Source: Actinobacteria bacterium Ga0077560
GTDB taxonomy: Bacteria; Actinomycetota; Thermoleophilia; Miltoncostaeales; Miltoncostaeaceae
Assembly (NCBI GenBank): GCA_001464275.1
Contig: LNFL01000123.1
Span: 1-64,000 of the forward strand
DNA: 64,000 bases
Direction: 5' to 3'
A model generated the notes under the pieces. That model was not told the DNA's origin and made no database searches. It saw nothing but the letters and a program-made list of their open reading frames with translations. The position numbers were made by a program, and so were the translations under genes. Shown piece after piece: positions 48,576 through 64,000 of this stretch; within the stretch, counting starts at the first letter, position 1; every line of letters starts with the position of its first letter.

Positions 48576-51305
48576 TCAGTCCGCCGCGTCCCGCATCCAT
48601 ACGGCCAGGGCCGTGCGGCTCCTGAGACCCGCCTTCGCGTAGATCCGTGTGAGGTGGTGCTCCACGGTCTTGCGGCTGATCAGCAGCTCCGCGGCGATCT
48701 CGGGGTTCGTCGCGCCACGAGCGACGGCAAGCGCGATCCGGGTCTCCTGCGGCGTCAGCGGAACGTCCCGGCCCGGGGCGGTGCCGAGCCGCTCGCCGGT
48801 CGCCTCGAGTTCCCGGGCGGCTCGCTCCGCCCAGGGACGCGCGCCCAGGCGAAGGAACGCGTCGCGGGCCTCGTGCAGCGGGATCCGGGCGTCGCCGGGC
48901 CGGCGCAGGCGGCGCAGGTGTTCCCCCAGCAGGAGCGCGGTGCGGGCGCGGCCGAACGGAACGGCGGCGCCGTGGAGGGCCAGCGCGCGGCGGTACGCCG
49001 CCTCGGCATCCTCACCGTCGCGGAGCATCGCGTCGCAGCGCGCGGCGGCGGCGCGCGTCCACGCGCACCCGGTGCGGGATGCGGCCTCCTCGAGTGACCT
49101 GAGCGCCTCCCGGGCCTCCTGAACGCGCCCCGCCCGCACCAGCGCCTCCACCAGGTCCCCGCCGGACCGGAGCACGGTCGGGTGCGCCACCTCGCGGTCC
49201 CGTGCCATGGCGTCCGCACGGAGCAGGTGGCCCGCGGCAGCGTCCGGCCAGCCGGCGCTCAGCTGCAGCAGGCCGCGCAGCGCCGCGCAGTACAGCAACA
49301 GCGAGTCCACGCCGGTCGCGGCCGCGATCGCCTCGGCCGCATCCAGATGCCGTTCCGCATCGACCAGGATGCCCCGTCCGGCCTCCACGTGCGCACATGC
49401 CACGAGGGCCAGCGCAGCGTTGGCGGGCTGTTCGGTCGCCTCGGCCAGGTCCACGGCCTCCGCCGCGGCCGCGAGGGCGGCGGTCCAGTGGCCGTCGCGG
49501 AACTCCACGATGGCGAGCACCGCCAGCGGATAGGGGAGCGCACCCACGGCGGAGGCCGCGCGGGCCTCGGCGACCAGGTCCACCAGCAGGGAACGGAGCT
49601 CGGTGTGGTCCCCCAGCCACAGCAGCCCCATCGCCGCGGCGGGAATGAGCACCGGGTGACGGTCGCCGCGTCGCGCGGCCCGCACCGCGGCGCTGAGCAT
49701 GCGGCGCCCGTCGGCCGTGCGGCCCTGCATCAGCAGCCCCTGGGCGGCCACCGCCTCGGCGGTCAGCCGCTCCGGCGCCGGCGTACGGGCTCGGTCCAGC
49801 AGCTCGAGCGCGCGGCCCGAGAGATCGAGGACCGCCCGGGTATCGCCGCTCGGCAGCGCGCTCATGGCCGCGGCCGTCAGCAGCGAGGCCGCCTCCGGCG
49901 GATCGGACGCCGCCAGCGACTCCGCCCTGGGCACCAGGACCGCTCGCGCCTCCCGCACCATGCCCGCGCCGGCCAGGATCGCCGCCCGGGCCCGCAGCGC
50001 GGGGATCGTCTCGCCCTCGGCGCCCAGCTCGTCCAGCACGGCGAGCCCCTCGCGGTGACGACCCGATCGGGCCATCACGGAGGCGGCCTCCACCGAGCGC
50101 CGGGCGTGGGCGTCACGGGCGGGACTGAGCCGTGCGGCCTGCAGCATCGCCGTGGCGGCGGCGTCCGCGGCGCCACGATGCAGATGCCGCCCGGCCGTCT
50201 CCTCCAGCGCCGCCGCCGCCCGCTCGTCCGGCCCGTCGGCCGCCGCCGCCAGGTGCCATGCCCGGGCGTCGCCGTCCTCGCAGGCCGCGAGCGCCGCGTG
50301 GATCGTCCGCCGTTCCGACGGGGCGGCGCGCTGGGCCACGACCGAGCGCATCAGCGGATGACGCCACGCCACCGTCCGGCCTTCGATCGCGACGATTCCC
50401 GCGGTCTCGGCATCCCGCAGACGACCCGGATCGACGTTGCACGCGGCGCACGCGCGCCGCACCACCTCGGTGCGTGAGGAGATCGCGAATGCCGCGATCA
50501 GCAGGGCGCGAATGGTCTGCTGAGGCAGGGGCGCGAGGCGCGCGCCGAACGCCCGCTCGATCCGTTCACCCACCGGCAGCGCCGGAACGACGGATGGCAG
50601 TGGGCCGGCGCCGTCGGCGGCGGTCCTGCCCATCTCAATGAGGGCCAGGGGGTTTCCGCCGGTGGCGGCCATCAACGCTTCGGCCACGGGCCCGGCGACC
50701 CTCCCACCGGCGGCCCGGTTCAGCAGTTCGCCGGCTGCCCGTCGGTCGAGCCCGGTCAGTGCGATCGGCCGCGCGGTATCCGGAAGCGCCGCCGGGAGCC
50801 GGGCCTCCGCCCGGGCGGCCAGCAGGAGCATCACCGGCTCGTCGGTGAGCCGGCGGCCGGCGAAGAGGAGGGCCTCGGCGGTCGCCCGGTCGACCCAGTG
50901 CAGGTCGTCCACCGTCACGAGCAACGGGGCCGCCTCGGCCGCGGCACCGATCAGCGCCAGCAGGGCCGCCCCGACCGCGTGCCGGTCCACAGGCGCGCCC
51001 GGGGCGACGGCGGTCGCGTCGCGCAGCACGCGTGCCTGCCACCCGGGGAGCGCGCCGAGGTGCGGCGCAAGGGAGGGCAGCAGGGCGCCCAGCGTCGCGT
51101 ATGGCATCGCGGATTCCGGTTCGATGCCGCTCACGCCGGCGACGGTCATCCTCGTGGCCTCGGCGTTCCGCGCGGCGTGCGCGACGAGCGTGGACTTCCC
51201 CACGCCGGCCTCACCCAGCAGAACCGCCACCACCGCGCGCCCCGCGCGGGCGACGACGAGCATTTCGTCGAGCTCGACTCGCTCGGCATGGCGTCCGAAG
51301 AGCAC
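48576..51305 (-). CDS. Large LuxR-family ATPase regulator (LAL type)
   Basis: A 909-residue transcription regulator. N-terminal AAA/STAND ATPase with Walker A LLGEAGVGKSTLVAHA (about 30-45) and Walker B-like LLVTVDDLHWVD, a long helical TPR-like middle (about 330-830) and a C-terminal LuxR HTH (LTPQETRIALAVARGATNPEIAAELLIS, KTVEHHLTRIYAKAGLRSR). Such regulators respond to small metabolites and activate catabolic or secondary-metabolism genes. GTG start at 51305, directly after a -10 hexamer. Divergent from the RTX protein gene, a possible target. Confidence 0.92.
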   Translation of the reverse strand: MLFGRHAERVELDEMLVVARAGRAVVAVLLGEAGVGKSTLVAHAARNAEATRMTVAGVSGIEPESAMPYATLGALLPSLAPHLGALPGWQARVLRDATAVAPGAPVDRHAVGAALLALIGAAAEAAPLLVTVDDLHWVDRATAEALLFAGRRLTDEPVMLLLAARAEARLPAALPDTARPIALTGLDRRAAGELLNRAAGGRVAGPVAEALMAATGGNPLALIEMGRTAADGAGPLPSVVPALPVGERIERAFGARLAPLPQQTIRALLIAAFAISSRTEVVRRACAACNVDPGRLRDAETAGIVAIEGRTVAWRHPLMRSVVAQRAAPSERRTIHAALAACEDGDARAWHLAAAADGPDERAAAALEETAGRHLHRGAADAAATAMLQAARLSPARDAHARRSVEAASVMARSGRHREGLAVLDELGAEGETIPALRARAAILAGAGMVREARAVLVPRAESLAASDPPEAASLLTAAAMSALPSGDTRAVLDLSGRALELLDRARTPAPERLTAEAVAAQGLLMQGRTADGRRMLSAAVRAARRGDRHPVLIPAAAMGLLWLGDHTELRSLLVDLVAEARAASAVGALPYPLAVLAIVEFRDGHWTAALAAAAEAVDLAEATEQPANAALALVACAHVEAGRGILVDAERHLDAAEAIAAATGVDSLLLYCAALRGLLQLSAGWPDAAAGHLLRADAMARDREVAHPTVLRSGGDLVEALVRAGRVQEAREALRSLEEAASRTGCAWTRAAAARCDAMLRDGEDAEAAYRRALALHGAAVPFGRARTALLLGEHLRRLRRPGDARIPLHEARDAFLRLGARPWAERAARELEATGERLGTAPGRDVPLTPQETRIALAVARGATNPEIAAELLISRKTVEHHLTRIYAKAGLRSRTALAVWMRDAAD

Positions 51306-51311
51306 GCGCCG

Positions 51312-51317
51312 ATCCTA
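51312..51317 (-). promoter_or_regulatory. Leaderless -10 element (TAGGAT) for the LuxR ATPase gene
   Basis: Read on the minus strand, TAGGAT lies 6 bases before the GTG at 51305 with no ribosome-binding site. Confidence 0.5.
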
Positions 51318-51384
51318 CGGGTGACCCCCCGCCGGCCGGCCGGGTTCGGGAGATCCCCGATACCGGGCATCGTCGCGGCCGGAC

Positions 51385-51390
51385 TAGCGT
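51385..51390 (+). promoter_or_regulatory. Leaderless -10 element (TAGCGT) for the RTX protein gene
   Basis: TAGCGT lies 7 bases before the GTG at 51398; the gap CGCGGGC is not a convincing ribosome-binding site. Confidence 0.45.
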
Positions 51391-51397
51391 CGCGGGC

Positions 51398-53029
51398 GTG
51401 ACGAGCCCACCGTCCCCACACCACGGGCGCTCGGCGCGCCGCGGCCGAGCGGCGTGGGGCGGCGCGGTTGCGGCCGTGCTCGCGGCGACGGCCTGCGCGG
51501 CGTCGCCGGCCGCCGGCGCGCTGACCTTCACCTCGCAGGGGGCCGAACTGCTCGTGCGCTCCGACGCGGGCGCCGACACGCTGACCCTCACGATCGGCAC
51601 GCGCAGCGAGCTGGGCCCGGATCTGGTGACCCGCATCGACGTCGGCGTGCTGCAGTTCACCCTGGCGAATCCGTTCACCTTCGTGACCATCGTGGGGCGT
51701 CCCGACTGCCGGTCGTTCGGCGGGGTGGTGACGTGCCTGCGCGATCCCGGCGAACGTGTGAGCATCGAGCTGGGAGGCGGCGGCGACCGGTTCACGGCCA
51801 CCGGCTTCCCCGATCCGCTCTCGCTGGGCGGGGACTCCGGGGAGGACGTCATCCGTGGTGGTGACGGTGACGACGACATCGACGGCGGACCGGGCGACGA
51901 CGTCATCCGGGGCGGCGATGGTGACGACGACATCGACGGCGGGTCCGGTGACGACTTCGTGCTCGGCGGCGACGGCGATGACGCGCTGCAGGGCGGATTC
52001 GACGACGACGACGTCCAGGGTGGCGACGGCGTGGACACGGTGCGCGGCGGGCCCGGCGATGATCATGTGGTGGGGCAACTCGCGGGAGCACCCACGGGCA
52101 CCGCCCCGGAACTGGTGGAGGTCGCCACCGGCCTCGAGCGGCGGACGTCCGGGAAACGCTCGCTGAGCCTCATCCTGACCTCCCCGGACACCGGTGCGCC
52201 GCCGCTGCGCTTCCCGCGCTTCCCCGGGCAGCCGCTGCGAGACCAGGCCGACCTGGTGGACGGGGGCACGGGGACCGACGCGACGTCCTACGCGGGGTCG
52301 ACGCGCCCCGTGGAGATCACGCTCGACGGCCTGCCCAACGATGGCGCCGCCGGCGAGAACGACGACGTCCGGGGCGTCGAGATCATCGGGACCGGCTTCG
52401 GCAATGACCGGGTCATCGCGCAGGACGGCTCGCCCGACCTGGTGGTGTTCACACACGAGGGACGCGACCGGGTGAGCCTCGGCGACGGCGACGACATCAT
52501 CGACCCGGGGCCGGGGATTGACACGGTCACCGCTGGGGGTGGGCGTGACGGCATCCTCGCCCGGGACGGTGAGCAGGACCTGCGTCTGAACTGTGGCGCC
52601 GGGGACGACCTCATCGAAGCCGACCTGCAGGACGCGCTGGTGCCGTCGCCGTTCGGCATCGTCGGCTGTGAGGTCGCCGCCCAGGCGCCGGCACGCGAGC
52701 CGATGCCGGCGGTGCTGGGCCGGCCGCGGAGGGCGCCACAGGCCACCGCGGCGGGAACGGTTCCGGTGGAGCTGTTCTGCGGACCCCGGGCGCGGCCGCG
52801 CTGCGTGGGTCGCGTCTCGGTGACCCTCCCCGGGGCGCGGGCCGAGGTGGCGGTGGGCTACGCGATCCCACGTCGGCGCCGGGCCGTGATCCAGGTGCCG
52901 TTGCCGGCCGACGTGCGGTCGGCGCTGCGCACCCGCCGCGCGCCGGTCGCCGTCGTCGCGACGGCCGTGGAAGCCGGCCGGCTCGGACCTCGGACCAGCC
53001 GGGTGACGTTCCCCATCAGGTCCCGCTGA
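51398..53029 (+). CDS. Secreted calcium-binding RTX-repeat protein
   Basis: A 543-residue protein with a basic N-terminus and signal segment (GGAVAAVLAATACAASPAAGA). After a beta-rich region come RTX nonapeptides (GGDGDDDID, GGPGDDVIR, GGDGDDALQ) at about residues 148-222, an insert, then further Ca-binding turns (GDGDDIIDPGPGIDTV, CGAGDDLIEAD). The C-terminal 120 residues look like an Ig-type or beta-sandwich part with CGPRARPRC. RTX repeats bind calcium and fold outside the cell. No protease or lipase domain is evident. The next gene overlaps its stop (TGATG). Confidence 0.85.
   Translation: MTSPPSPHHGRSARRGRAAWGGAVAAVLAATACAASPAAGALTFTSQGAELLVRSDAGADTLTLTIGTRSELGPDLVTRIDVGVLQFTLANPFTFVTIVGRPDCRSFGGVVTCLRDPGERVSIELGGGGDRFTATGFPDPLSLGGDSGEDVIRGGDGDDDIDGGPGDDVIRGGDGDDDIDGGSGDDFVLGGDGDDALQGGFDDDDVQGGDGVDTVRGGPGDDHVVGQLAGAPTGTAPELVEVATGLERRTSGKRSLSLILTSPDTGAPPLRFPRFPGQPLRDQADLVDGGTGTDATSYAGSTRPVEITLDGLPNDGAAGENDDVRGVEIIGTGFGNDRVIAQDGSPDLVVFTHEGRDRVSLGDGDDIIDPGPGIDTVTAGGGRDGILARDGEQDLRLNCGAGDDLIEADLQDALVPSPFGIVGCEVAAQAPAREPMPAVLGRPRRAPQATAAGTVPVELFCGPRARPRCVGRVSVTLPGARAEVAVGYAIPRRRRAVIQVPLPADVRSALRTRRAPVAVVATAVEAGRLGPRTSRVTFPIRSR
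51845..52060 (+). repeat. Four tandem 54-bp units encoding RTX repeats
   Basis: Four 18-residue units start DVIRGGDGD, DVIRGGDGD, DFVLGGDGD and DDVQGGDGV. The first two are nearly identical at DNA level (GACGTCATCCG then a GACGGTGAC/GATGGTGAC core), indicating a recent duplication; the last two have drifted. Confidence 0.85.
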
Positions 53030-55191
53030 TGCTCGTCCGAGCCGCGCTGCTCGGAGCCGCGCTGCTGCTCACATCGGTGAGCGGGGCGGCGGCCGTGGTG
53101 TCACAGGTCGTGGCGACCGCGCCGCTGGCCAATCCCGCCACGGTGGCGACCGCCGGAGGGGACGGGCGCGTGTACGTCGGGACCGCTGCGGGCGGGGTCG
53201 TGGCGCGCATCGATGCGGCCGGTGGCGGGGTCCTGCAGCGTGCGCGTCCCGGCGGCGGGCGGGTGAGCGGACTGGCCGTCGATCCGGCCCGGGATCGTCT
53301 CTACGACATCGGGCCGGAGCGCGTGCTGATGGCCCGGGACGCGACCACGCTGGATGTCCGTGACCGCCTCGACCTCGCCGCAGGAGGGCCCCCCGGAGGC
53401 GTGCCCGTGGCCCTCGGCGTGGAGCCCGGCTCCGGCCGCATCGTGGTCCTGTCGGACGGGGTGGGGGGACGCGGCGAGCTGCTGGTCGTCGAGCCGGACC
53501 TCCGGATCCGTTCACGTGTCGAGCTCCCCGGGGCGCCGAGCGGGCTGGCGGTCGACCCGGGAGGCGGCCGGGCGTACGTCACGTTGCGCGGCCGCAGCGC
53601 CCTGGCGATGGTGGACCTGGCCCGGCCCGGCACGATCGCCGAGGTGCAGGTCGGCGCCGAGCCGATCGGGGTGGTCGTGCTGGTGCGCGGGACCGGGGTG
53701 CGCCTGGTGGTCACGGCGAACCGCCGCGGGCGCGACATCACCTCCGTCGAGGTCCGCGGCGACGCGCTGCGGCGGCTGGGCCGGCGCGAGGTGGGTGCGG
53801 TCCCCACGGCGATCGCGGCCGATGGCGCCCTGCCCACCGGTTCGGAGATCGCGCCGCGCGTGCACGTGAGCGCCGCCGACGGGGGTCTGACGGTGTTCCA
53901 GCGCAGCGATGCGACGGCGTCCGGGCTCACCACACTCGAACGGGTGGCGCTCGAGGGGCCCCTGGGCGCCGTGGCGGTCGACACACGCTCCCACCGGGTC
54001 GTGGCCGCCTCCTCGCAGGCGGGCCGCGCGACGCTGGTGTCGCGCTTCGAGCCGATGCTGCACGGGTTCTCCTTCCCCCAGACGTTCCAGGCCCCCGAGG
54101 TGGACCTGGCGATCGGGAGCTTCCGGCCGCCCGGCGTCTACGGCATGTGCGGCGGGGTGGCCTTCACCGCCATCGACACGTTCCGCGCGGGGGCGGTGCG
54201 CCCCAACGAGGACGAGGAGCCGCCCACAGCGGGCGTCGTGTTCGACTACGTCTTCCTACGACTGGTCGACAGCATCACCGGGGGATCACCCCCCATGTTC
54301 GCCCGCTACATCGACCACGACCGGCGCGGCCTCGACGATGTCCTGGTGCCCTTCACCTCGGTGGTGCTGCAGGAGGGGCTTCGCACGGTGACCGCCCGCA
54401 CCGCCCAGGGCGCGCTCCCCGACCTGGACCGGGGACGGCCGGTGCCGCTGGGGGTGATCCTGGCGGAGGGTGTGTTCGCCGACCCCTTCCGCGACCACGT
54501 GGTCACCGCGGTGGGCCACTTCCTCACGCCCGGTGGTGAACGGGTGATCGAGGTCTACGACCCGAACTTCCCCAACCGCCTGAGCTTCTACTTCACCCAG
54601 CGGCGCATCGTGGCGACCGACCGGCAGGGGACGCCGCAGCGCGTGATCGACGCGGCCACGGGCGAGGAGCGGGACCTCACGTTCCGCGGGCTCATCTCCG
54701 CCGCCGACGCGTATGCGGCGCGTCGCCCCCCGTGGGCCGACGGGCCGGTCGGCACGCCCAGGCTCCTGCCGGGAACGACGGTTCGGGCGTCCAGATCCGG
54801 CCGCGCCACGGTGACATTGCGCTGGACCAGTCCCACCTCGTGGCGCAGCCTGCGGCACGTCGATCTGCGGCTCTCCGACGGGAGCGGGGTCATCGGCACC
54901 GTGCGCCTCGACCGCGGGCGGACGCTCGGGGTCGTCGGTCCCTCGGGCGGCGGGCCGTCGGGCGCTCCGGGATCCGCCCGCATCCTGCGACGGGGACCCG
55001 TGAGCGTGGACCTGCGGGGGAGCCGGGTCGTGCGAACGGGGGCCGGGGGCCGGACCGTCACCATGCGGGTCGTCCTGCGCCTTCGTGGCATCACCGGTCG
55101 CGCCGTGCGGCTGGACGCCGGCGCGACCGGGATCACGGGCAACCGGCAGCCACCGCGCCCCGTGGGACGGATCACGCTGCCGCCACGCTGA
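53029..55191 (+). CDS. Secreted beta-propeller protein with papain-like cysteine peptidase domain
   Basis: A 720-residue exported protein (signal AALLGAALLLTSVSGAAA). Residues about 30-340 are a YVTN/NHL-type propeller (GRVYVGTAAGGVVARID, VSGLAVDPARDRLYDI, PSGLAVDPGGGRAYVTLRG, LGAVAVDTRSHRVVAAS). Residues about 345-560 resemble a bacterial papain-like domain: Cys in YGMCGGVAFTAIDTF, His in FRDHVVTAVGHFLT and Asn in IEVYDPNFPN, in the correct order for a Cys-His-Asn triad. The C-terminus (about 590-720) is beta-rich, perhaps a sandwich domain. ATG overlaps the RTX gene stop, so the two secreted proteins are co-translated. Peptidase activity is inference. Confidence 0.72.
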   Translation: MLVRAALLGAALLLTSVSGAAAVVSQVVATAPLANPATVATAGGDGRVYVGTAAGGVVARIDAAGGGVLQRARPGGGRVSGLAVDPARDRLYDIGPERVLMARDATTLDVRDRLDLAAGGPPGGVPVALGVEPGSGRIVVLSDGVGGRGELLVVEPDLRIRSRVELPGAPSGLAVDPGGGRAYVTLRGRSALAMVDLARPGTIAEVQVGAEPIGVVVLVRGTGVRLVVTANRRGRDITSVEVRGDALRRLGRREVGAVPTAIAADGALPTGSEIAPRVHVSAADGGLTVFQRSDATASGLTTLERVALEGPLGAVAVDTRSHRVVAASSQAGRATLVSRFEPMLHGFSFPQTFQAPEVDLAIGSFRPPGVYGMCGGVAFTAIDTFRAGAVRPNEDEEPPTAGVVFDYVFLRLVDSITGGSPPMFARYIDHDRRGLDDVLVPFTSVVLQEGLRTVTARTAQGALPDLDRGRPVPLGVILAEGVFADPFRDHVVTAVGHFLTPGGERVIEVYDPNFPNRLSFYFTQRRIVATDRQGTPQRVIDAATGEERDLTFRGLISAADAYAARRPPWADGPVGTPRLLPGTTVRASRSGRATVTLRWTSPTSWRSLRHVDLRLSDGSGVIGTVRLDRGRTLGVVGPSGGGPSGAPGSARILRRGPVSVDLRGSRVVRTGAGGRTVTMRVVLRLRGITGRAVRLDAGATGITGNRQPPRPVGRITLPPR

Positions 55192-55890: not shown

Positions 55891-56721
55891 GTGACCAGCA
55901 TCTCGCCAGACCCCGCGGCGTCCGCGGCGGATCCGGGCCGGCCCGAGGACGGCCGGTTGCTGTCGCAGATCCGCCCGGTGGGCGGAGGGGACGTGTTCGA
56001 GGAGGTGCTGCAGCGCCTCATGCACCTGGTGAAGCTCGGCCTCGTGCCCATCGGTTCGCGGCTGCCCCCGGAGCGCGAGCTGGCCGCGAGCCTCGGGGTG
56101 AGCCGCCAGACGCTGCGGGAGGTCCTCCGGTCGCTCGTGCAGACCGGGCACCTTGAGACCCGCCGTGGTCGCGGCGGCGGCACGTTCGTGCGCGACTGGC
56201 ACGCCGTGCGGTCGGAGGTGGACGCCCGCCGGGTGGCGCGCGGGATGGGCGCGCAGCTCGGCAACATCCTCGACCTGCGCTGGGTCGTCGAGCCGGGGGC
56301 GGCGGCGCTCACGGCGCGCCGTGGCACCGAGGACACCGATCGCCGGCTCGCGGAGGGCCTGGCCGCGCTGGCCACCGCGCCCAGGACGACCTTCCCGGCC
56401 ACCGAACGGCGACCGCGCGATCCGGCGGGGGCGGCGGCCGCCACCGGGGTGGACTACCGCGCCGCCGATGCCCAGTTCCACATGCTGATCGGCGAGCTCA
56501 CCGGTTCCCGCGCGGTGTTCGAGGTGGTGGTGGAGATCCAGTTCCAGCTCACCGACCTGCTGTCGGTGACCCCGCAGATGGCCGAGGTGCTGCACCACTC
56601 CGACGAGCAGCACCTGGCGATCGTCGATGCGATCGGGCGTCGGGACCCCGAGGGGGCCGCCGCCGCGATGCGCGAGCACCTGGAGAGCACGGCGACGTTT
56701 CTGGAGGCGTTCTTCGACTGA
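55891..56721 (+). CDS. GntR-family (FadR/FCD) transcriptional regulator
   Basis: A 276-residue regulator: winged helix (GLVPIGSRLPPERELAASLGVS, RQTLREVLRSLVQTGHLETRRGRGGGTFV, about 45-105) and a C-terminal FCD ligand domain (DLRWVVEPGAAALTARR, DAQFHMLIGELTGS, DEQHLAIVDAIGRRDPEGAAAAMREHLE) with Asp and three His as a metal/ligand pocket. It is directly upstream of, and probably represses, the ligase-nitrilase-amidotransferase operon through the inverted repeat at 56746-56759. The effector may be an organic acid or amine product. Confidence 0.9.
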   Translation: MTSISPDPAASAADPGRPEDGRLLSQIRPVGGGDVFEEVLQRLMHLVKLGLVPIGSRLPPERELAASLGVSRQTLREVLRSLVQTGHLETRRGRGGGTFVRDWHAVRSEVDARRVARGMGAQLGNILDLRWVVEPGAAALTARRGTEDTDRRLAEGLAALATAPRTTFPATERRPRDPAGAAAATGVDYRAADAQFHMLIGELTGSRAVFEVVVEIQFQLTDLLSVTPQMAEVLHHSDEQHLAIVDAIGRRDPEGAAAAMREHLESTATFLEAFFD

Positions 56722-56735
56722 GCACGCGGTGCATA

Positions 56736-56765
56736 TTGCATAAAGGTCTGTCCTCAGACTATTTT
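56736..56765 (+). promoter_or_regulatory. Promoter with operator in the spacer, upstream of the GS-like operon
   Basis: TTGCAT (56736-56741), 18 bases, TATTTT (56760-56765). The spacer contains a perfect inverted repeat GTCTG-TCCT-CAGAC (56746-56759). A second symmetric element TGCATATTGCA lies at 56730-56740. This 40-bp patch is strikingly A+T-rich for the window. FCD-type regulators commonly bind short inverted repeats with a small spacer, so it is a good site for the adjacent regulator. Confidence 0.65.
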
Positions 56766-56844: not shown

Positions 56845-58314
56845 ATGGCGACCACAGCGGTCAGCAGGCCCAGGCTCGAACCGTTCATCCAGCGTCACGG
56901 GCTCTGGAACGACGAGCAGCGTGAGGCGGCGGACAGGGTCCGGGCGGAGATCCGCGAGCGCGGTCTCAGGTTCATCCGTCTCGGCTGGGGCGACCAGCAC
57001 GGGATCGTCCGGGGGAAGACGCTCTCGGTGCCGGAGTTCATGCGCGTGCTGGAGGACGGGAAGGACTTCCAGCTCGTGACGACGCTGTTCGACACCACGA
57101 ACCATCCCATCGTCGCGCCGTTCGCCGGCGAGGGGCCGTTCGGCGTCGAGGAGATGATGGGGCTGCCCGATGGCGTGCTGGTACCGGACCCCACCACGTT
57201 CCACGTGCTGCCCTGGGTGCCCGACACCGGCTGGCTGCTCGCCGACGCGCACCTCAACAGTGGTGCGCCGTGCCCGTTCTCGACCCGGCAGCTGCTGCGC
57301 CAGCAGATCTCGCGGCTCGCGTCCGAGGGGTTCGAGTACACGACCGGACTCGAGATCGAGTTCTACGTCACGCGCCTGCTGGATCCGCGGCTGTCGCCCG
57401 AGGAGAGCGGCTGGCCGCCGGAGCCGCCCCGCGTGGAGGCGCTGGCCCACGGCTTCCAGTACCTCACCGAGAACCGGAATGACGAGGTCGACGAGATCCT
57501 GAGCGTGATCTGGGGGACGCTCGAGGGCCTGGGCCTGCCGATCGCATCGCTCGAGGACGAGTGGGGACCGGGCCAGTGCGAGGTGACCTTCGGCCCCCAG
57601 CCGGCGATGCGGGCCGCCGACGACGCCCTGCTGGTACGGACCGCCATCAAGCAGGTCTGCCGGCGCCACGGGTACCACGCGACGTTCATGGCGTGTCCGG
57701 CGCTCCCGAACTTCTTCTTCAGCGGCTGGCACCTGCACCAGTCGCTGGTCGACACCGCGACCGGCGCCAACGCCTTCACGGAGCGCCAGGGTGATGAGCT
57801 GCTGTCGGAGGTGGGCCGCGGCTTCCTGGGCGGGCTGCTGGAGCACGCGGGCGCGGCGTCGGTCTTCACGACGCCCACCATCACGGGCTACAAGCGGTTC
57901 CGTCCCGACTCGTTCGCCCCGGAGAACGCGTGCTGGGCGTTCGAGAACCGCGGCGCCATGCTGCGCGTGATCGGCGGGCCGGGAAGCGAGGGCGCGCGGA
58001 TCGAGAACCGGATCGGCGACCCCGCCGCGAACCCCTACCTGTACATGGCCTCGCAGCTCGTGGCCGGGCGCGCCGGCATCGCCGCGGGCACGGACCCCGG
58101 GCCGCCGGTCTCGGCCGCGTACCTCAACGACCGTCCGCGGCTGCCGCACAGCCTGATGGAGGCGCTCGACGCGCTCAGGGCCGACACCCTGTTCCGCGCC
58201 GAGCTCGGCGACACGTTCGTGGACTACATGCTCGGCCTCAAGTCGTTCGAGGTCTCGCGTTTCCTGAGTCACGTCACCGACTGGGAGCAGCGTGAGTACT
58301 TCGAGGTGTTCTAG
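56845..58314 (+). CDS. Glutamine synthetase-like gamma-glutamyl-amine ligase
   Basis: A 489-residue GS-fold ligase. Recognisable GS motifs: GLEIEFYVTRLL (metal-binding Glu), DEWGPGQCEVTFGPQPA, FFFSGWHLHQSL (NGxHxH-like) and FENRGAMLRVIGG followed by ARIENRIGDPAANPYLYMA. It is more like GlnA3/PuuA/TdnQ-type enzymes, which join glutamate to organic amines, than like housekeeping GlnA; the usual adenylylation-site segment is not evident. ATG at 56845 follows GGAGGGAAG. First gene of an operon with a nitrilase and an amidotransferase. Amine substrate unknown. Confidence 0.85.
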   Translation: MATTAVSRPRLEPFIQRHGLWNDEQREAADRVRAEIRERGLRFIRLGWGDQHGIVRGKTLSVPEFMRVLEDGKDFQLVTTLFDTTNHPIVAPFAGEGPFGVEEMMGLPDGVLVPDPTTFHVLPWVPDTGWLLADAHLNSGAPCPFSTRQLLRQQISRLASEGFEYTTGLEIEFYVTRLLDPRLSPEESGWPPEPPRVEALAHGFQYLTENRNDEVDEILSVIWGTLEGLGLPIASLEDEWGPGQCEVTFGPQPAMRAADDALLVRTAIKQVCRRHGYHATFMACPALPNFFFSGWHLHQSLVDTATGANAFTERQGDELLSEVGRGFLGGLLEHAGAASVFTTPTITGYKRFRPDSFAPENACWAFENRGAMLRVIGGPGSEGARIENRIGDPAANPYLYMASQLVAGRAGIAAGTDPGPPVSAAYLNDRPRLPHSLMEALDALRADTLFRAELGDTFVDYMLGLKSFEVSRFLSHVTDWEQREYFEVF

Positions 58315-58324
58315 CGCCCAGCAC

Positions 58325-58350
58325 GGGGGCCGGCGGTGACGCCGGCCCCC
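58325..58350 (+). promoter_or_regulatory. Perfect GC hairpin enclosing the nitrilase start codon
   Basis: GGGGGCCGGC (58325-58334) and GCCGGCCCCC (58341-58350) form a perfect 10-bp all-G/C stem. The six-base loop GGTGAC contains the GTG start of the nitrilase at 58336. It could end part of the transcription after the ligase gene, or control translation of the nitrilase. Confidence 0.55.
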
Positions 58351-59307
58351 ACGGGTGCCAACGGCGTGCTGCGCGTGGCCGCGGCCCAGGCCCGGCCCGT
58401 GTGGCTGGACGCCGGGGCCACCACGGATCGGGTGGAGGCGCTGATCGAGGAGGCGGCGCAGGCGGGGGTGGGCCTGCTGGCCTTCCCCGAGACGTTCCTG
58501 CCCGGGTACCCGGTCTGGGTGTGCCGCACCGACGGGGCCAGGTTCGAGGACCCCCGGCAGAAGCGGGCCTTCGCGCAGTACCTGGCCGCGGCGGTGGAGA
58601 TCGACGGTCCCGAGGTGGCCAGGGTCTGCCGTGCGGCCGCCCGGCACGGGGTGTTCGTCTACCTCGGGATCGCCGAGCGCTGTCCGGCCGCCGGAGGCGG
58701 CACGGTGTATTGCACGCTGCTGGCGATCGACCCGGAACAGGGCGTGGTGGGGGCGCACCGCAAGCTGGTGCCCACCCACGACGAGCGCTTGGTGTGGGGT
58801 CGCGGCGACGGTCACGGCCTGCGGACCCACAGCGTCGGAGGCGTGCGCACCGGTGGCCTGAGCTGCTGGGAGAACTGGATGCCGCAGGCCCGGCACGCGC
58901 TGTACTGCGAGGGCGAGGAGCTCCACATCTCCACGTGGCCCGGGGCGCCGGCCATGACCGCCGACGCGCCCCGGCTGGTCGCGCTCGAGGGTCGCGTGTA
59001 CTCGCTGGCCGCCAGCGGGCTGCTCTCGCACGAGGACATCCCGGAGTGGTTCGAGTTCGCCCGGGAGATGCGCGGCGAGGATGCCGGGTTCCCGTTCCGG
59101 GGCGGATCCGGCATCGTGGGACCCGACGGGCGGTGGGTGGTGGGCCCGGTGGTCGGAACCGAGGGACTGGTGATCGCGGACATCGAGCTGGACCGGGTGC
59201 GGCAGGAACGGCTCTCGTTCGACGTGGCGGGCCACTACGCCCGGCCCGACGTGTTCGAGGTGACCGTGCACCGCCGCAGGCTGTCGGCCGGGACGTTCAC
59301 CGAGTGA
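58336..59307 (+). CDS. Nitrilase (aliphatic/aromatic nitrilase branch)
   Basis: A 323-residue carbon-nitrogen hydrolase. The triad is complete: Glu in LLAFPETFLPGYPVWV, Lys in GAHRKLVPTHDERLVWG and Cys in TGGLSCWENWMPQARHAL. The FPETFLPGYP and CWENWMP patterns are those of true nitrilases (nitrile to acid plus ammonia) rather than amidases. GTG at 58336 lies in a hairpin loop; GTG at 58366 is an in-frame alternative. Lies between a GS-like ligase and an amidotransferase, so nitrile breakdown and gamma-glutamyl chemistry are linked here. Confidence 0.88.
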   Translation: MTPAPTGANGVLRVAAAQARPVWLDAGATTDRVEALIEEAAQAGVGLLAFPETFLPGYPVWVCRTDGARFEDPRQKRAFAQYLAAAVEIDGPEVARVCRAAARHGVFVYLGIAERCPAAGGGTVYCTLLAIDPEQGVVGAHRKLVPTHDERLVWGRGDGHGLRTHSVGGVRTGGLSCWENWMPQARHALYCEGEELHISTWPGAPAMTADAPRLVALEGRVYSLAASGLLSHEDIPEWFEFAREMRGEDAGFPFRGGSGIVGPDGRWVVGPVVGTEGLVIADIELDRVRQERLSFDVAGHYARPDVFEVTVHRRRLSAGTFTE

Positions 59308-59978
59308 GCGCCAGCGCGCTGGTGCTGCAGCACGAGGCGTCGGTTCCGCCCGGCCTGCTCGGTGAGTGGATGGCCATGCGCGGCATGCGCATGGACGTCG
59401 TCATGGTCCCGGAGACGGCCTCGCCGGTGCCGGTCGCCGGGTATGACCTGGTGGCGAGCCTCGGCTCGGTGGCCTCGGTGTGCGGCGACCAACCCTGGAT
59501 CGCCCGCGAGACCGAGATCCTGCAGGAGGCGATCGCCCGGGAGACCCCCGTGCTGGGCCTGTGCTTCGGCGGGCAGTCCCTCGCCCATGCGCTGGGGGCC
59601 GTCGTGCGGCCCGCGAGCCGGGCGGAGATCGGCTGGATGCCCGTCGACTCCCAGGACACCGATCTCGTTGCGCCCGGGCCCTGGTTCAGCTGGCACTCCG
59701 ACCGGTTCGACGTGCCGGCCGGCGGCGCCGAGGTGGCCCGCAGCGACGTGTGCCCGCACGCGTTCACCTTCGGGCCGCACCTGGGACTCCAGTTCCACCC
59801 CGAGGTGGATCCCGGCATCGTCGCCGGCTGGGCGGCCGAGGGCACCCAGGATCTGCTGGGCGCGGGTGTGGATCCCGCCGACCTGATCGCGGAGACCGTG
59901 CGCCGCATGCCGGAGGCACGGCCGCGGGCGCTGGCGCTCTTCGACGCCTTCTGGGAGCGGGCGCGGCGCGGCGCGTGA
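59304..59978 (+). CDS. Class I glutamine amidotransferase-like hydrolase
   Basis: A 224-residue GATase1 protein with the nucleophile in VLGLCFGGQSLAHALG and His-x-Glu in LGLQFHPEVDPG. There is no synthetase domain. Stand-alone GATases next to GS-like ligases (as TdnT with TdnQ in aniline degradation) act on gamma-glutamyl compounds, so it may remove or transfer the glutamyl group made by the ligase at 56845. GTG start overlaps the nitrilase stop (GTGA), i.e. tightly coupled. Confidence 0.82.
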   Translation: MSASALVLQHEASVPPGLLGEWMAMRGMRMDVVMVPETASPVPVAGYDLVASLGSVASVCGDQPWIARETEILQEAIARETPVLGLCFGGQSLAHALGAVVRPASRAEIGWMPVDSQDTDLVAPGPWFSWHSDRFDVPAGGAEVARSDVCPHAFTFGPHLGLQFHPEVDPGIVAGWAAEGTQDLLGAGVDPADLIAETVRRMPEARPRALALFDAFWERARRGA

Positions 59979-59991
59979 GCGCCCGCCCGGA

Positions 59992-60420
59992 TCAGCCGAT
60001 CGGGGTGAGCACCACCACGGGGAATGGCCGGTCGGTGAGACGGCGGTAGTTCGCGAACCCGGGGGAGTGCGCCACCAGGCGGTCCCACAGACCCGCCGCC
60101 TCGTCACCCTCGGTGAACCGCGCTGTGCACGGGAGGTCGGAGCCACCCACCACCACCGTCGCGCGAGGGTCGGCGCGCAGGTTGTGGACCCATCCGGGGT
60201 CGTGGTCGCGACCGGCATTGCTGGCGGTCACCACGTAGGCGTCGCCGTCGACGACGAACACGAGCGGCGTGGGGCGCGGCCGTCCGGACCGGCGTCCGGT
60301 GGTGACCAACACCAGCACGGGGTGTCCGCGGAAGCGCGCCCACATCCGGCCCCGGGACCGGCGGTACACCCATGCCTGCGCGCGGGAGAAGCCGCGAATC
60401 ACCGCGTCGGGAGGAGCCAT
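59992..60420 (-). CDS. Deazaflavin-dependent (F420) nitroreductase-like protein
   Basis: A 142-residue split-barrel protein of the Ddn/DUF385 family: VLVLVTTGRRSGRPRPTPLVFV and GRDHDPGWVHNLRADPRATV are its marks (the Ddn-type GGxxxHPxWxxNL motif). Members use cofactor F420, found in actinobacteria, to reduce quinones or nitro compounds. ATG at 60420 with GAGG about 8 bases upstream; a start at 60456 would add 12 residues. Convergent with the amidotransferase gene. Confidence 0.85.
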   Translation of the reverse strand: MAPPDAVIRGFSRAQAWVYRRSRGRMWARFRGHPVLVLVTTGRRSGRPRPTPLVFVVDGDAYVVTASNAGRDHDPGWVHNLRADPRATVVVGGSDLPCTARFTEGDEAAGLWDRLVAHSPGFANYRRLTDRPFPVVVLTPIG

Positions 60421-61876: not shown

Positions 61877-64000
61877 TCACTCCCCCAGGACGTGCTCGCT
61901 CAACGCGGCGGCCAGCTCGCTCCGGTTGCGGACCGCCAGTTTCCGGTAGACCCGGGTGAGGGTGGCCTCCACGGTGCGGCGGCTCACGAACTGGCGGGCG
62001 GCGATCTCCGGGTTGGTGAGACCCTCGGCCGCCAGGCGCGCGATCCGCAGCTCGCTGGGCGACAGGCGGGCCGTGGACGAGGGATTCCAGGTGCGGTTCA
62101 GCTCATCCTCGGCGCGTCGGCGCCACAGCTCCGCGCCCGTGCGGGCGAACTCGTCGTGGGCGGCCTGCAGGGCGGCCCGCGCGGCCGCCCGTTGCCGACG
62201 ACGCCGCTCCAGCTGGCCGAGCACCAGCAGCGAGCGGCCCAGCTCGATCGGGAAGCCGCGGTCGCGCAGGGCGGCCACCGACGCCTCGGCCTGCGCGCTC
62301 GCCAGGGCCTGGTCGCCCTCCGCCGAGGCGATGAGGGCGCGGCAGCGCAGGCACGCGCCGCGCGACCAGATCCGCTGCAGCTCGACGCACCGGCGTTCGT
62401 AGGGGTCCAGCAGCTCCCGGGCCCGCTCCACCTGGCCGGCCAGCACCAATGCCTCCACGGCGTCGGGCACGTAGAACGCATAGCTGGGGTCCGGGCCGTT
62501 GGGATCCAGCCGTTCCAGTGCCGGCTGCGCCCACCGCAGGCCCGCCTCGTGGTCGCCGGCGGCGAGCTCGAGCCGCACCAGCAGGGCGACCATCCAGGAG
62601 ATCGCGGCGGCGGGGTGCCCGGTTCGGGCCAGTTCCATGGCATCGGCCGCGGCCCTCCTGGCGGCGGCCAGATCGCCGTCGAACATGTGGGCGTTGGCAC
62701 GCAGCATGCCCACCGGCGCCCGGGCGAACGGGCCTCCCGTGTCCTCCGCGACGTCCGCGCACATGTCCGCCGCGCGTTCCACGGCGCCGCGGTCACCGCG
62801 CATCGCGCCGAGGTTCCCCAGGTGCACGGCCAGGTACGGGATGTCGCCGAGGTTCCCGAGGGTCGAGAGCGTGCCGATCTCGTCCTCGATGGCGCGGATG
62901 GCCTCGTCGAGGTGCCCCGCGTAGCCGCGCAGCACGGCCCGCACCATGCCGGGGCGCAGCTGCACCCGGGACCGGCGGCGCGGATCGGCGATCTCCTGGG
63001 CGTGCCGGAGGGCCTCGTCGTCGATGCCGCCAACCAGGCGCCAGCGTGCCGCGGCCCGCATGGCGATGGCCTCGCTGAGCGGCCCGTCCTCGCCGGCCGC
63101 GGACGCACGGGCCACCGACAGGTCCGCGTGACCCAGGATCTCCACGGGATCGGCCCCGGTGTAGTGCAGCGCGTGGACCATCACCAGGTGGGCCCATGCG
63201 GCGCCGGCATCGTGATCGGCCAGTTGCTCCAGGGCGCGCTGCAGCAGGTCGACGGCGTCCTGCATCTGGCCCCGCCAGAACTGCGCCTCACCGGCGAGCA
63301 CCAGCACCTGGCCGCCAAGGGGGCCGTCCAGGCTGGGGAGGTCCTCCATCACCTGCACCATCTCCGCGTGCAGGCCGGCCCGGCCGAACAGCTCACATGC
63401 CTGCAGGCCGCGTCGGGCCAACTCGTCGGCCCGATCGGGAGGGGTGAGGCGCCACGACCGGTCGGCGAGCTCGGCCGCGCCGTGGGGGACGCCGCGTGCG
63501 GCCGCGTCCAGGGCGGCCGCCTCGAGGGTGTCGGCCACCTCTGCGTCGGGGCCCTCCACGCTCAACGCCAGGTGCCGCGCGCGGTGCTGCAGGTCGCCCT
63601 GCTCGGTGGCCAGCCGCGCGTGCATCGCGCGGCGTGCGGCGGGCGGCGTGAGCGCCATGATGGCCGACTCGTAGAGCGGGTGCGTGAAGACCACCGAGCC
63701 ACCGGCGCCCACGGCGACCATCCCCGCCAGCTCGGCGGATGCGAGGGCATCCAGGTCGTCGTCCGGGCAGGGCGCGGATGGATCACACGCGAGCCGCAGC
63801 AGGGCGTCGCGGGTTCGCGCGGGAAGGGTCGCCAGACGTCGCGACACCGCGGCGCTCACGTCGACCGGCACGGGCAGCGGGGCGTCGGGTGATGGCGGCT
63901 CGGCCTCCGTGGCCCGGGCGAGCTCCAGCGCGGCAAGGGGGTTCCCCCGCGCCGCCCGGGTGATGCGGCGGACCACGTCGGGACGCAGATCCCGGCCGCC
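61877..64000 (-). CDS. Large LuxR-family ATPase regulator (LAL type), N-terminus beyond window
   Basis: At least 707 residues are inside the window; the Walker motifs lie past the right edge. The visible start VRRITRAARGNPLAALELARA is the GNPLA sensor segment of the ATPase domain, followed by a helical TPR-like region and a C-terminal LuxR HTH (LSPSELRIARLAAEGLTNPEIAARQFVS, RTVEATLTRVYRKLAVRNR). Same architecture as the protein at 48576-51305 but clearly a different paralogue. Target unknown. Confidence 0.9.
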   Translation of the reverse strand, partial: GGRDLRPDVVRRITRAARGNPLAALELARATEAEPPSPDAPLPVPVDVSAAVSRRLATLPARTRDALLRLACDPSAPCPDDDLDALASAELAGMVAVGAGGSVVFTHPLYESAIMALTPPAARRAMHARLATEQGDLQHRARHLALSVEGPDAEVADTLEAAALDAAARGVPHGAAELADRSWRLTPPDRADELARRGLQACELFGRAGLHAEMVQVMEDLPSLDGPLGGQVLVLAGEAQFWRGQMQDAVDLLQRALEQLADHDAGAAWAHLVMVHALHYTGADPVEILGHADLSVARASAAGEDGPLSEAIAMRAAARWRLVGGIDDEALRHAQEIADPRRRSRVQLRPGMVRAVLRGYAGHLDEAIRAIEDEIGTLSTLGNLGDIPYLAVHLGNLGAMRGDRGAVERAADMCADVAEDTGGPFARAPVGMLRANAHMFDGDLAAARRAAADAMELARTGHPAAAISWMVALLVRLELAAGDHEAGLRWAQPALERLDPNGPDPSYAFYVPDAVEALVLAGQVERARELLDPYERRCVELQRIWSRGACLRCRALIASAEGDQALASAQAEASVAALRDRGFPIELGRSLLVLGQLERRRRQRAAARAALQAAHDEFARTGAELWRRRAEDELNRTWNPSSTARLSPSELRIARLAAEGLTNPEIAARQFVSRRTVEATLTRVYRKLAVRNRSELAAALSEHVLGE

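What the first reader, a model, noticed from the sequence alone, without database searches (positions are those of the whole stretch)
56845..59978. Operon of GS-like ligase, nitrilase and amidotransferase: possible gamma-glutamyl route for amino-nitriles
GS-like ligase plus stand-alone GATase is the pair used in aniline (TdnQ/TdnT) and polyamine routes to attach and remove glutamate. A true nitrilase inserted between them, with overlapping reading frames, is not an arrangement I know. Hypothesis: an amine bearing a nitrile (for example an aminonitrile or a cyano-amino acid) is gamma-glutamylated, the nitrile is hydrolysed, and the GATase frees the product. Alternatively the ligase recaptures ammonia released by the nitrilase.
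Basis: inference. Interest (0 to 1): 0.65.

Follow-up and report, generated by a model that had tools for sequence, protein, structure and literature searches.

The report
Glutamate-tagging enzyme paired with nitrilase
The window holds a small gene cassette, shared by scattered soil and marine bacteria of two phyla, whose enzymes most likely tag a small amine with glutamate, turn its nitrile group into an acid and then remove the tag; it appears undescribed, and its substrate is unknown.

Summary
In detail: FCD/GntR regulator, GS-like ligase (56845-58314), nitrilase (58336-59307) and class-I GATase (59304-59978) lie on one strand. Nitrilase and GATase overlap by 4 bp; GS and nitrilase are 21 bp apart. 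The arrangement is not unique: ligase and nitrilase are adjacent in 22 other loci in Actinomycetota and Pseudomonadota. The linked ligases form one clade (100/99, one exception), and so do the linked nitrilases (96/94). Ligases outside that clade often sit beside Rieske oxygenases or a GATase, as in aniline pathways, so the nitrilase takes the oxygenase's place. The GATase is optional. The ligase lacks both residues that glutamine synthetase needs for ammonia (Asp50 to Gln, flap Glu327 to Phe) but keeps metal, ATP and glutamate residues, so ammonia recapture is disfavoured. Its amine-tunnel loop is invariant in the clade and unlike other organic-amine ligases, which suggests one shared amine. 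Best reading: a gamma-glutamyl route in which the nitrile of a glutamate-capped amine is hydrolysed and the cap removed. Shown: genes, conservation, active-site residues. Inferred: order of steps and nitrile substrate. Unknown: the amine. No description was found in the searched library. Verdict: new variant of a known kind.

The parts
55891..56721 (+). GntR/FCD (FadR-type) transcription regulator, GTG start
   Evidence: Pfam FCD 8.5e-20 and GntR 8.1e-16; FCD regulators flank the ligase in 15 of 19 related loci
56746..56759 (.). weak candidate operator GTCTGtcctCAGAC in the regulator-ligase gap
   Evidence: read from sequence; relatives carry clear palindromes here; this one has only 5-bp arms and may be chance
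56845..58314 (+). GS-like gamma-glutamyl organic-amide ligase (GoaS type), 489 aa
   Evidence: Gln-synt_C 3.2e-82; best solved structure NpaA1 8wwu 1.2e-141; Asp50 to Gln76, Glu327 to Phe357, catalytic Glu/His/Arg kept
58336..59307 (+). nitrilase (CN hydrolase), Glu52-Lys143-Glu150-Cys177, CWEN motif
   Evidence: CN_hydrolase 4.5e-43; best solved structures are nitrilases; catalytic residues in 61 of 61 aligned
59304..59978 (+). stand-alone class-I glutamine amidotransferase-like hydrolase, GTG start
   Evidence: GATase 8.9e-10; Cys (GLCFGGQ) and His-Glu (FHPEV) kept; 32-41% to partners in other triplets, about 28-33% over part of its length to NpaA2/TdnT-type

Best explanation
A self-contained gamma-glutamylation cassette for an amine that also bears a nitrile. 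The ligase uses ATP to join the gamma-carboxyl of glutamate to the primary amine. The nitrilase then hydrolyses the nitrile of the capped molecule to a carboxylate plus ammonia. The GATase-like enzyme (elsewhere a PuuD-type hydrolase, or an unlinked enzyme) cleaves the gamma-glutamyl bond, freeing the amino acid and glutamate. An FCD regulator controls the operon. It works like the putrescine (Puu) and aniline (Tdn/Atd/Npa) routes, with a nitrilase in place of the oxidase/dehydrogenase or Rieske oxygenase. Shown here: gene content, conserved partnership, active-site residues. Inferred: order of steps, nitrile as the nitrilase substrate. Unknown: identity of the amine (candidates only: aminoacetonitrile, beta-aminopropionitrile, aminobenzonitriles).
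For: Ligase-nitrilase pair conserved in 22 other loci, same order in all but one. Linked nitrilases one clade 96/94; linked ligases one clade 100/99, with L123 the sole exception. Ligase-driven sampling of about 990 genomes in three taxa: every clade member has the nitrilase; of 35 family-level hits outside the clade none does, while 16 have a Rieske oxygenase and 12 a GATase. Ammonia residues lost as in GoaS enzymes, none of which was reported to convert ammonium (PMC11335346). Invariant clade-specific amine-tunnel loop K73, Q76, T79, T85, P88 (23/23). Nitrilase Asp149, next to catalytic Glu150, in all linked and 1 of 39 unlinked. In L123 the GATase is replaced by a Peptidase C26 related to PuuD (32%), a gamma-glutamyl-GABA hydrolase. 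A proteobacterial copy carries an HTH-cupin regulator, the same domain make-up as PuuR (general knowledge).
Against: No substrate or activity is known. The nitrilase is only distantly related to characterised ones and scores below the Nit6803 family cut-off, so it could act on another C-N bond. The GATase is missing next to 7 of the linked pairs, and one of five such genomes searched, Acidisoma, has no homologue elsewhere. No amine or nitrile transporter or downstream enzyme marks the substrate.
Confidence: 0.5

Rival explanations
1. Nitrilase acts first on a free aminonitrile, giving an amino acid; the ligase then caps that amino acid, or another amine, as a storage or detoxified form, and the GATase reverses it.
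For: True nitrilases usually take free nitriles (general knowledge); the conserved pair does not fix the order of steps.
Against: In the homologous aniline system the tailoring enzyme acts on the gamma-glutamyl conjugate (PMC11335346), and the ligase precedes the nitrilase in the operon in almost all loci.
Confidence: 0.2
2. The CN-hydrolase is not a nitrilase in function but an amidase-type hydrolase acting on the gamma-glutamyl amide or on another amide of the substrate.
For: The superfamily is catalytically diverse (general knowledge); the GATase is dispensable in 7 loci, so another enzyme may cleave the amide; the protein is below the curated nitrilase cut-off.
Against: The best matches among solved structures are all nitrilases and cyanide-degrading enzymes; the CWEN motif and tetrad are invariant; nitrilase and a gamma-glutamyl hydrolase-type enzyme coexist in 15 loci.
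Confidence: 0.2
3. Ammonia recapture: nitrilase releases ammonia and the GS-like enzyme assimilates it as glutamine.
For: Adjacent genes; nitrilases release ammonia (general knowledge).
Against: Asp50 and Glu327, needed for ammonium, are Gln and Phe in all 23 linked ligases, while the genome's own L004 protein, which groups with E. coli GlnA, keeps both.
Confidence: 0.03
4. Detoxification of a nitrile-free amine or xenobiotic; the nitrilase is a passenger with a separate role under the same regulator.
For: GoaS enzymes can have a broad amine range (PMC11335346).
Against: The nitrilase is never missing from the 23-member ligase clade, and both genes keep clade-specific residues.
Confidence: 0.07

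Closest known systems
Aniline / chloroaniline / 1-naphthylamine clusters (TdnQT, DcaQT, AtdA1A2, NpaA1A2 with Rieske dioxygenase)
   Same: GoaS-type ligase about 47% identical, with GATase neighbour; acidic Glu237 and Glu239 and tunnel Phe82, Phe93, Trp240 kept
   Different: No Rieske oxygenase next to the operon; nitrilase instead; different amine-tunnel loop; GATase only distantly related
E. coli Puu putrescine pathway (PuuA-PuuB-PuuC-PuuD)
   Same: Logic of capping an amine, making a carboxylate, and releasing it; L123 carries a PuuD-like hydrolase
   Different: Ligase only about 26% identical to PuuA; no PuuB/PuuC-type oxidase or dehydrogenase next to the operon
Class-1 nitrilases (Nit6803, NIT4, cyanide dihydratases) and the Nit1C cluster
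   Same: Catalytic tetrad and CWEN motif; best solved-structure matches
   Different: Scores 186 against a cut-off of 503 for the Nit6803 model; partner genes of this operon are ligase and GATase
Glutamine synthetase GlnA
   Same: Fold family and metal, ATP and glutamate residues
   Different: Ammonium-site Asp50 and Glu327 absent

Membership tests
GoaS (glutamyl organic amide synthetases) | GS catalytic domain with metal-ligand Glu/His and the glutamate and phosphate Arg residues | tested here: met
   E129, E131, E212, E220, H269, R321, R339, E357, R359 equivalents all present
GoaS (glutamyl organic amide synthetases) | Loss of ammonium residues Asp50 and flap Glu327, and presence of the extra N-terminal loop (15th motif) | tested here: met
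   Gln76, Phe357, and an inserted loop aligned to NpaA1 68-86 (PMC11335346)
GoaS (glutamyl organic amide synthetases) | Activity on an organic amine, none on ammonium | not testable with these tools
   needs enzyme assay
Aniline-type Tdn/Atd/Npa degradation cluster | Ligase plus GATase plus two-component Rieske oxygenase in one cluster | tested here: not met
   no oxygenase among the genes flanking the operon in the window; nitrilase instead
True (class 1) nitrilase | Catalytic Glu-Lys-Cys with second Glu, and CWE motif | tested here: met
   E52, K143, E150, C177, CWEN; the catalytic residues in 61 of 61 aligned sequences
True (class 1) nitrilase | Hydrolyses a nitrile | not testable with these tools
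   needs enzyme assay
Nit6803 / Nit1C nitrilase family | Score above the NCBIfam TIGR04048 cut-off | tested here: not met
   186 bits against 502.6
Class-I GATase-type gamma-glutamyl hydrolase | Cys-His-Glu catalytic residues | tested here: met
   GLCFGGQ and FHPEV motifs aligned to NpaA2 and PuuD
Class-I GATase-type gamma-glutamyl hydrolase | Hydrolysis of a gamma-glutamyl amide | not testable with these tools
   inferred from partnership and from replacement by a PuuD-like enzyme in L123

The most novel reading that the evidence does not exclude
A previously undescribed gamma-glutamyl-protected nitrile pathway: bacteria of two phyla assimilate or detoxify a specific aminonitrile by capping its amine with glutamate, hydrolysing the nitrile on the capped molecule, and uncapping the amino acid.
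Probability: 0.45. Interest if true: 0.72.

Novelty: new variant of a known kind. Interest (0 to 1): 0.6.

Why it matters
Gamma-glutamyl capping is known for amines processed by oxidases, dehydrogenases and Rieske oxygenases. A nitrilase as the tailoring enzyme would extend the scheme to nitrile chemistry, point to a natural aminonitrile substrate that soil and marine bacteria share, and give a defined in vivo role to a clade of nitrilases, enzymes usually studied for biocatalysis. The conserved ligase loop makes the substrate question directly testable.

Tried and rejected
Ammonia recapture: rejected on active-site residues. Triplet unique to this genome: rejected, although within 42 genomes of the order only this one has the nitrilase. 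Horizontal insertion shown by flanking synteny in the same-genus genome G009: not resolved, because the flanking genes are weakly matched or on different contigs. Glycine-cleavage and serine-dehydratase genes upstream in three Pseudonocardia looked like a clue to a glycine product, but they occur in that one genus only and are probably housekeeping. His148 of the nitrilase was first thought diagnostic; only Asp149 is. The DUF1097 model is too poor (pLDDT 60) for a fold search. Literature searches for nitrilase with GS-like ligase, aminonitrile or gamma-glutamylation found nothing relevant; the library lacks most subscription journals. Phage records: no nitrilase match.

Full report
Observation. 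Nitrilase and GATase overlap by 4 bases; GS and nitrilase are 21 bases apart. No Rfam family lies there.

What the proteins are. The GS-like protein scores well below every curated cut-off for glutamine synthetase, gamma-glutamylputrescine synthetase and type III ligase. Its best solved relative by a wide margin is NpaA1 (8wwu; 1.2e-141), which glutamylates 1-naphthylamine and anilines (PMC11335346). The residues for metal, ATP and glutamate are kept, but Asp50 and flap Glu327 of glutamine synthetase are Gln76 and Phe357. The paper reports the loss of the catalytic Asp50 and of the Glu-flap residue in organic-amine ligases, and that none of them was reported to convert ammonium. The genome's L004 protein, which groups with E. 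coli GlnA, keeps Asp and Glu. The CN hydrolase matches only nitrilases and cyanide-degrading enzymes at the top of the solved structures and has Glu52, Lys143, Glu150 and Cys177 in a CWEN motif; the four catalytic residues are invariant in 61 aligned sequences. The GATase keeps the Cys and His-Glu motifs and is related to GATases beside other such ligases.

Is the arrangement conserved? A nitrilase-driven scan of 84,980 species genomes, followed by tblastn, found the ligase next to the nitrilase in 19 loci: Patulibacter, Solirubrobacteraceae, three Pseudonocardia, Umezawaea, Actinomycetospora, seven mycobacteria, Kineosporia, two Acidisoma, Poseidonocella and Mangrovicoccus. Ligase-driven searches, which are free of that selection, added a Streptomyces tendae plasmid with ligase, nitrilase, GATase and FadR-type regulator in a row, genome G417 and genome G802, for 22 other loci in all. 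An FCD regulator accompanies 15 of the 19. In the four Acidisoma and Rhodobacterales loci an HTH-type regulator of one family takes its place, shown to be HTH plus cupin in the one scanned. A DUF1097 membrane protein is present in 9 loci. The GATase is next to 13 of the 20 pairs in the first set (window included) and also on the Streptomyces plasmid. Genes further out differ between lineages, so the cassette is self-contained.

Co-inheritance. In the nitrilase tree the 22 linked rows form one clade (96/94). In a ligase tree of 65 rows, 23 of the 24 linked ligases form one clade (100/99), with L123 as the only linked row outside it. Ligase-driven sampling of 301 genomes from the family of a Mycolicibacterium locus (Mycobacteriaceae) and 297 from that of Pseudonocardia (Pseudonocardiaceae) gave 40 loci. 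The five inside the clade all have the nitrilase (four are genomes already known from the nitrilase scan, one is new). Of the 35 outside none has it; 16 have a Rieske oxygenase and 12 a GATase within 1.5 kb. In the characterised plasmids the same ligase family sits beside GATase and Rieske dioxygenase. So one branch of the organic-amine ligases pairs with a nitrilase where others pair with an oxygenase.

Specificity marks. Fourteen ligase positions are near-invariant in the nitrilase-linked clade and rare outside it. Most of those between residues 73 and 90 (K73, Q76, T79, T85, P88) lie in the loop that lines the amine tunnel of NpaA1, two flank the pocket position V201 (H202, T208), and one is the former Glu flap (F357). 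This suggests one shared amine, different from aniline. In the nitrilase, Asp149, which precedes catalytic Glu150, is present in all 22 linked rows and in 1 of 39 unlinked ones.

Regulation. Upstream of the ligase, all seven mycobacteria carry near-perfect palindromes of the form CAGGTGATC-n-GATCACCTG; the two Solirubrobacterales carry ATTGGTCGACCAAT; Pseudonocardia, Kineosporia and Actinomycetospora carry TGGTCTGACCA-like sites. These fit FadR-type regulators (general knowledge). In the window only a weak GTCTGtcctCAGAC is seen.

Mechanism. In the aniline systems the oxygenase acts on the gamma-glutamyl conjugate (PMC11335346). By the same layout the nitrilase would act on a gamma-glutamyl-aminonitrile, giving a gamma-glutamyl amino acid. 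Release by a gamma-glutamyl hydrolase follows: the window uses the GATase, and G417 uses a Peptidase C26 32% identical to E. coli PuuD, annotated as gamma-glutamyl-GABA hydrolase. Four of five searched genomes that lack the adjacent GATase have a homologue elsewhere; Acidisoma has none. The order of steps and the nitrile nature of the substrate are inference; the substrate is unknown.

Novelty. The searched library has no paper that joins nitrilase to a GS-like ligase or to gamma-glutamylation of a nitrile; most subscription journals are not held, so this is weak evidence of absence. The parts are of known families; the combination is a new variant of gamma-glutamyl amine pathways.

Noticed in passing
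L144, L145, L149-L151, L160, L164, L165, L170-L174, L176, L180, L181: Many Pseudonocardiaceae and Mycobacteriaceae ligases of this family sit beside Rieske oxygenases: a set of apparently uncharacterised amine-glutamylation and oxygenation pairs.
   Followed up: partly
L123:5100-11820, L124:8160-14236, L125:502-8064: Sister ligases lie in clusters with an amidohydrolase (Amidohydro_2), reminiscent of FluG/NodGS fusions; in L123 the amidohydrolase gene overlaps the nitrilase gene.
   Followed up: partly
L028:5958-6431, L038:9688-10191, L043:5744-6265: A DUF1097 membrane protein recurs beside the cassette in 9 loci and may be an uptake protein; the window genome has one copy on another contig (C152).
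   Followed up: partly
L042:5014-5697 and L043:4997-5680: An isochorismatase-family hydrolase accompanies the cassette, divergently, in two Rhodobacterales.
   Followed up: no
L027, L028, L049 (first 5 kb): gcvT, gcvH, glyA-like genes and a serine dehydratase lie just upstream of the cassette in three Pseudonocardia.
   Followed up: partly
window 48576-51305 and 61877-63976 (- strand): Two large paralogous proteins with the look of LuxR-type ATP-binding regulators flank this region.
   Followed up: no
window 51032-53029 and 53029-55191: Asp/Gly-rich calcium-binding-like repeat protein, then a beta-propeller-like secreted protein.
   Followed up: no
window 59992-60420 (- strand): F420H2-dependent quinone reductase family protein directly downstream, convergent.
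   Followed up: no
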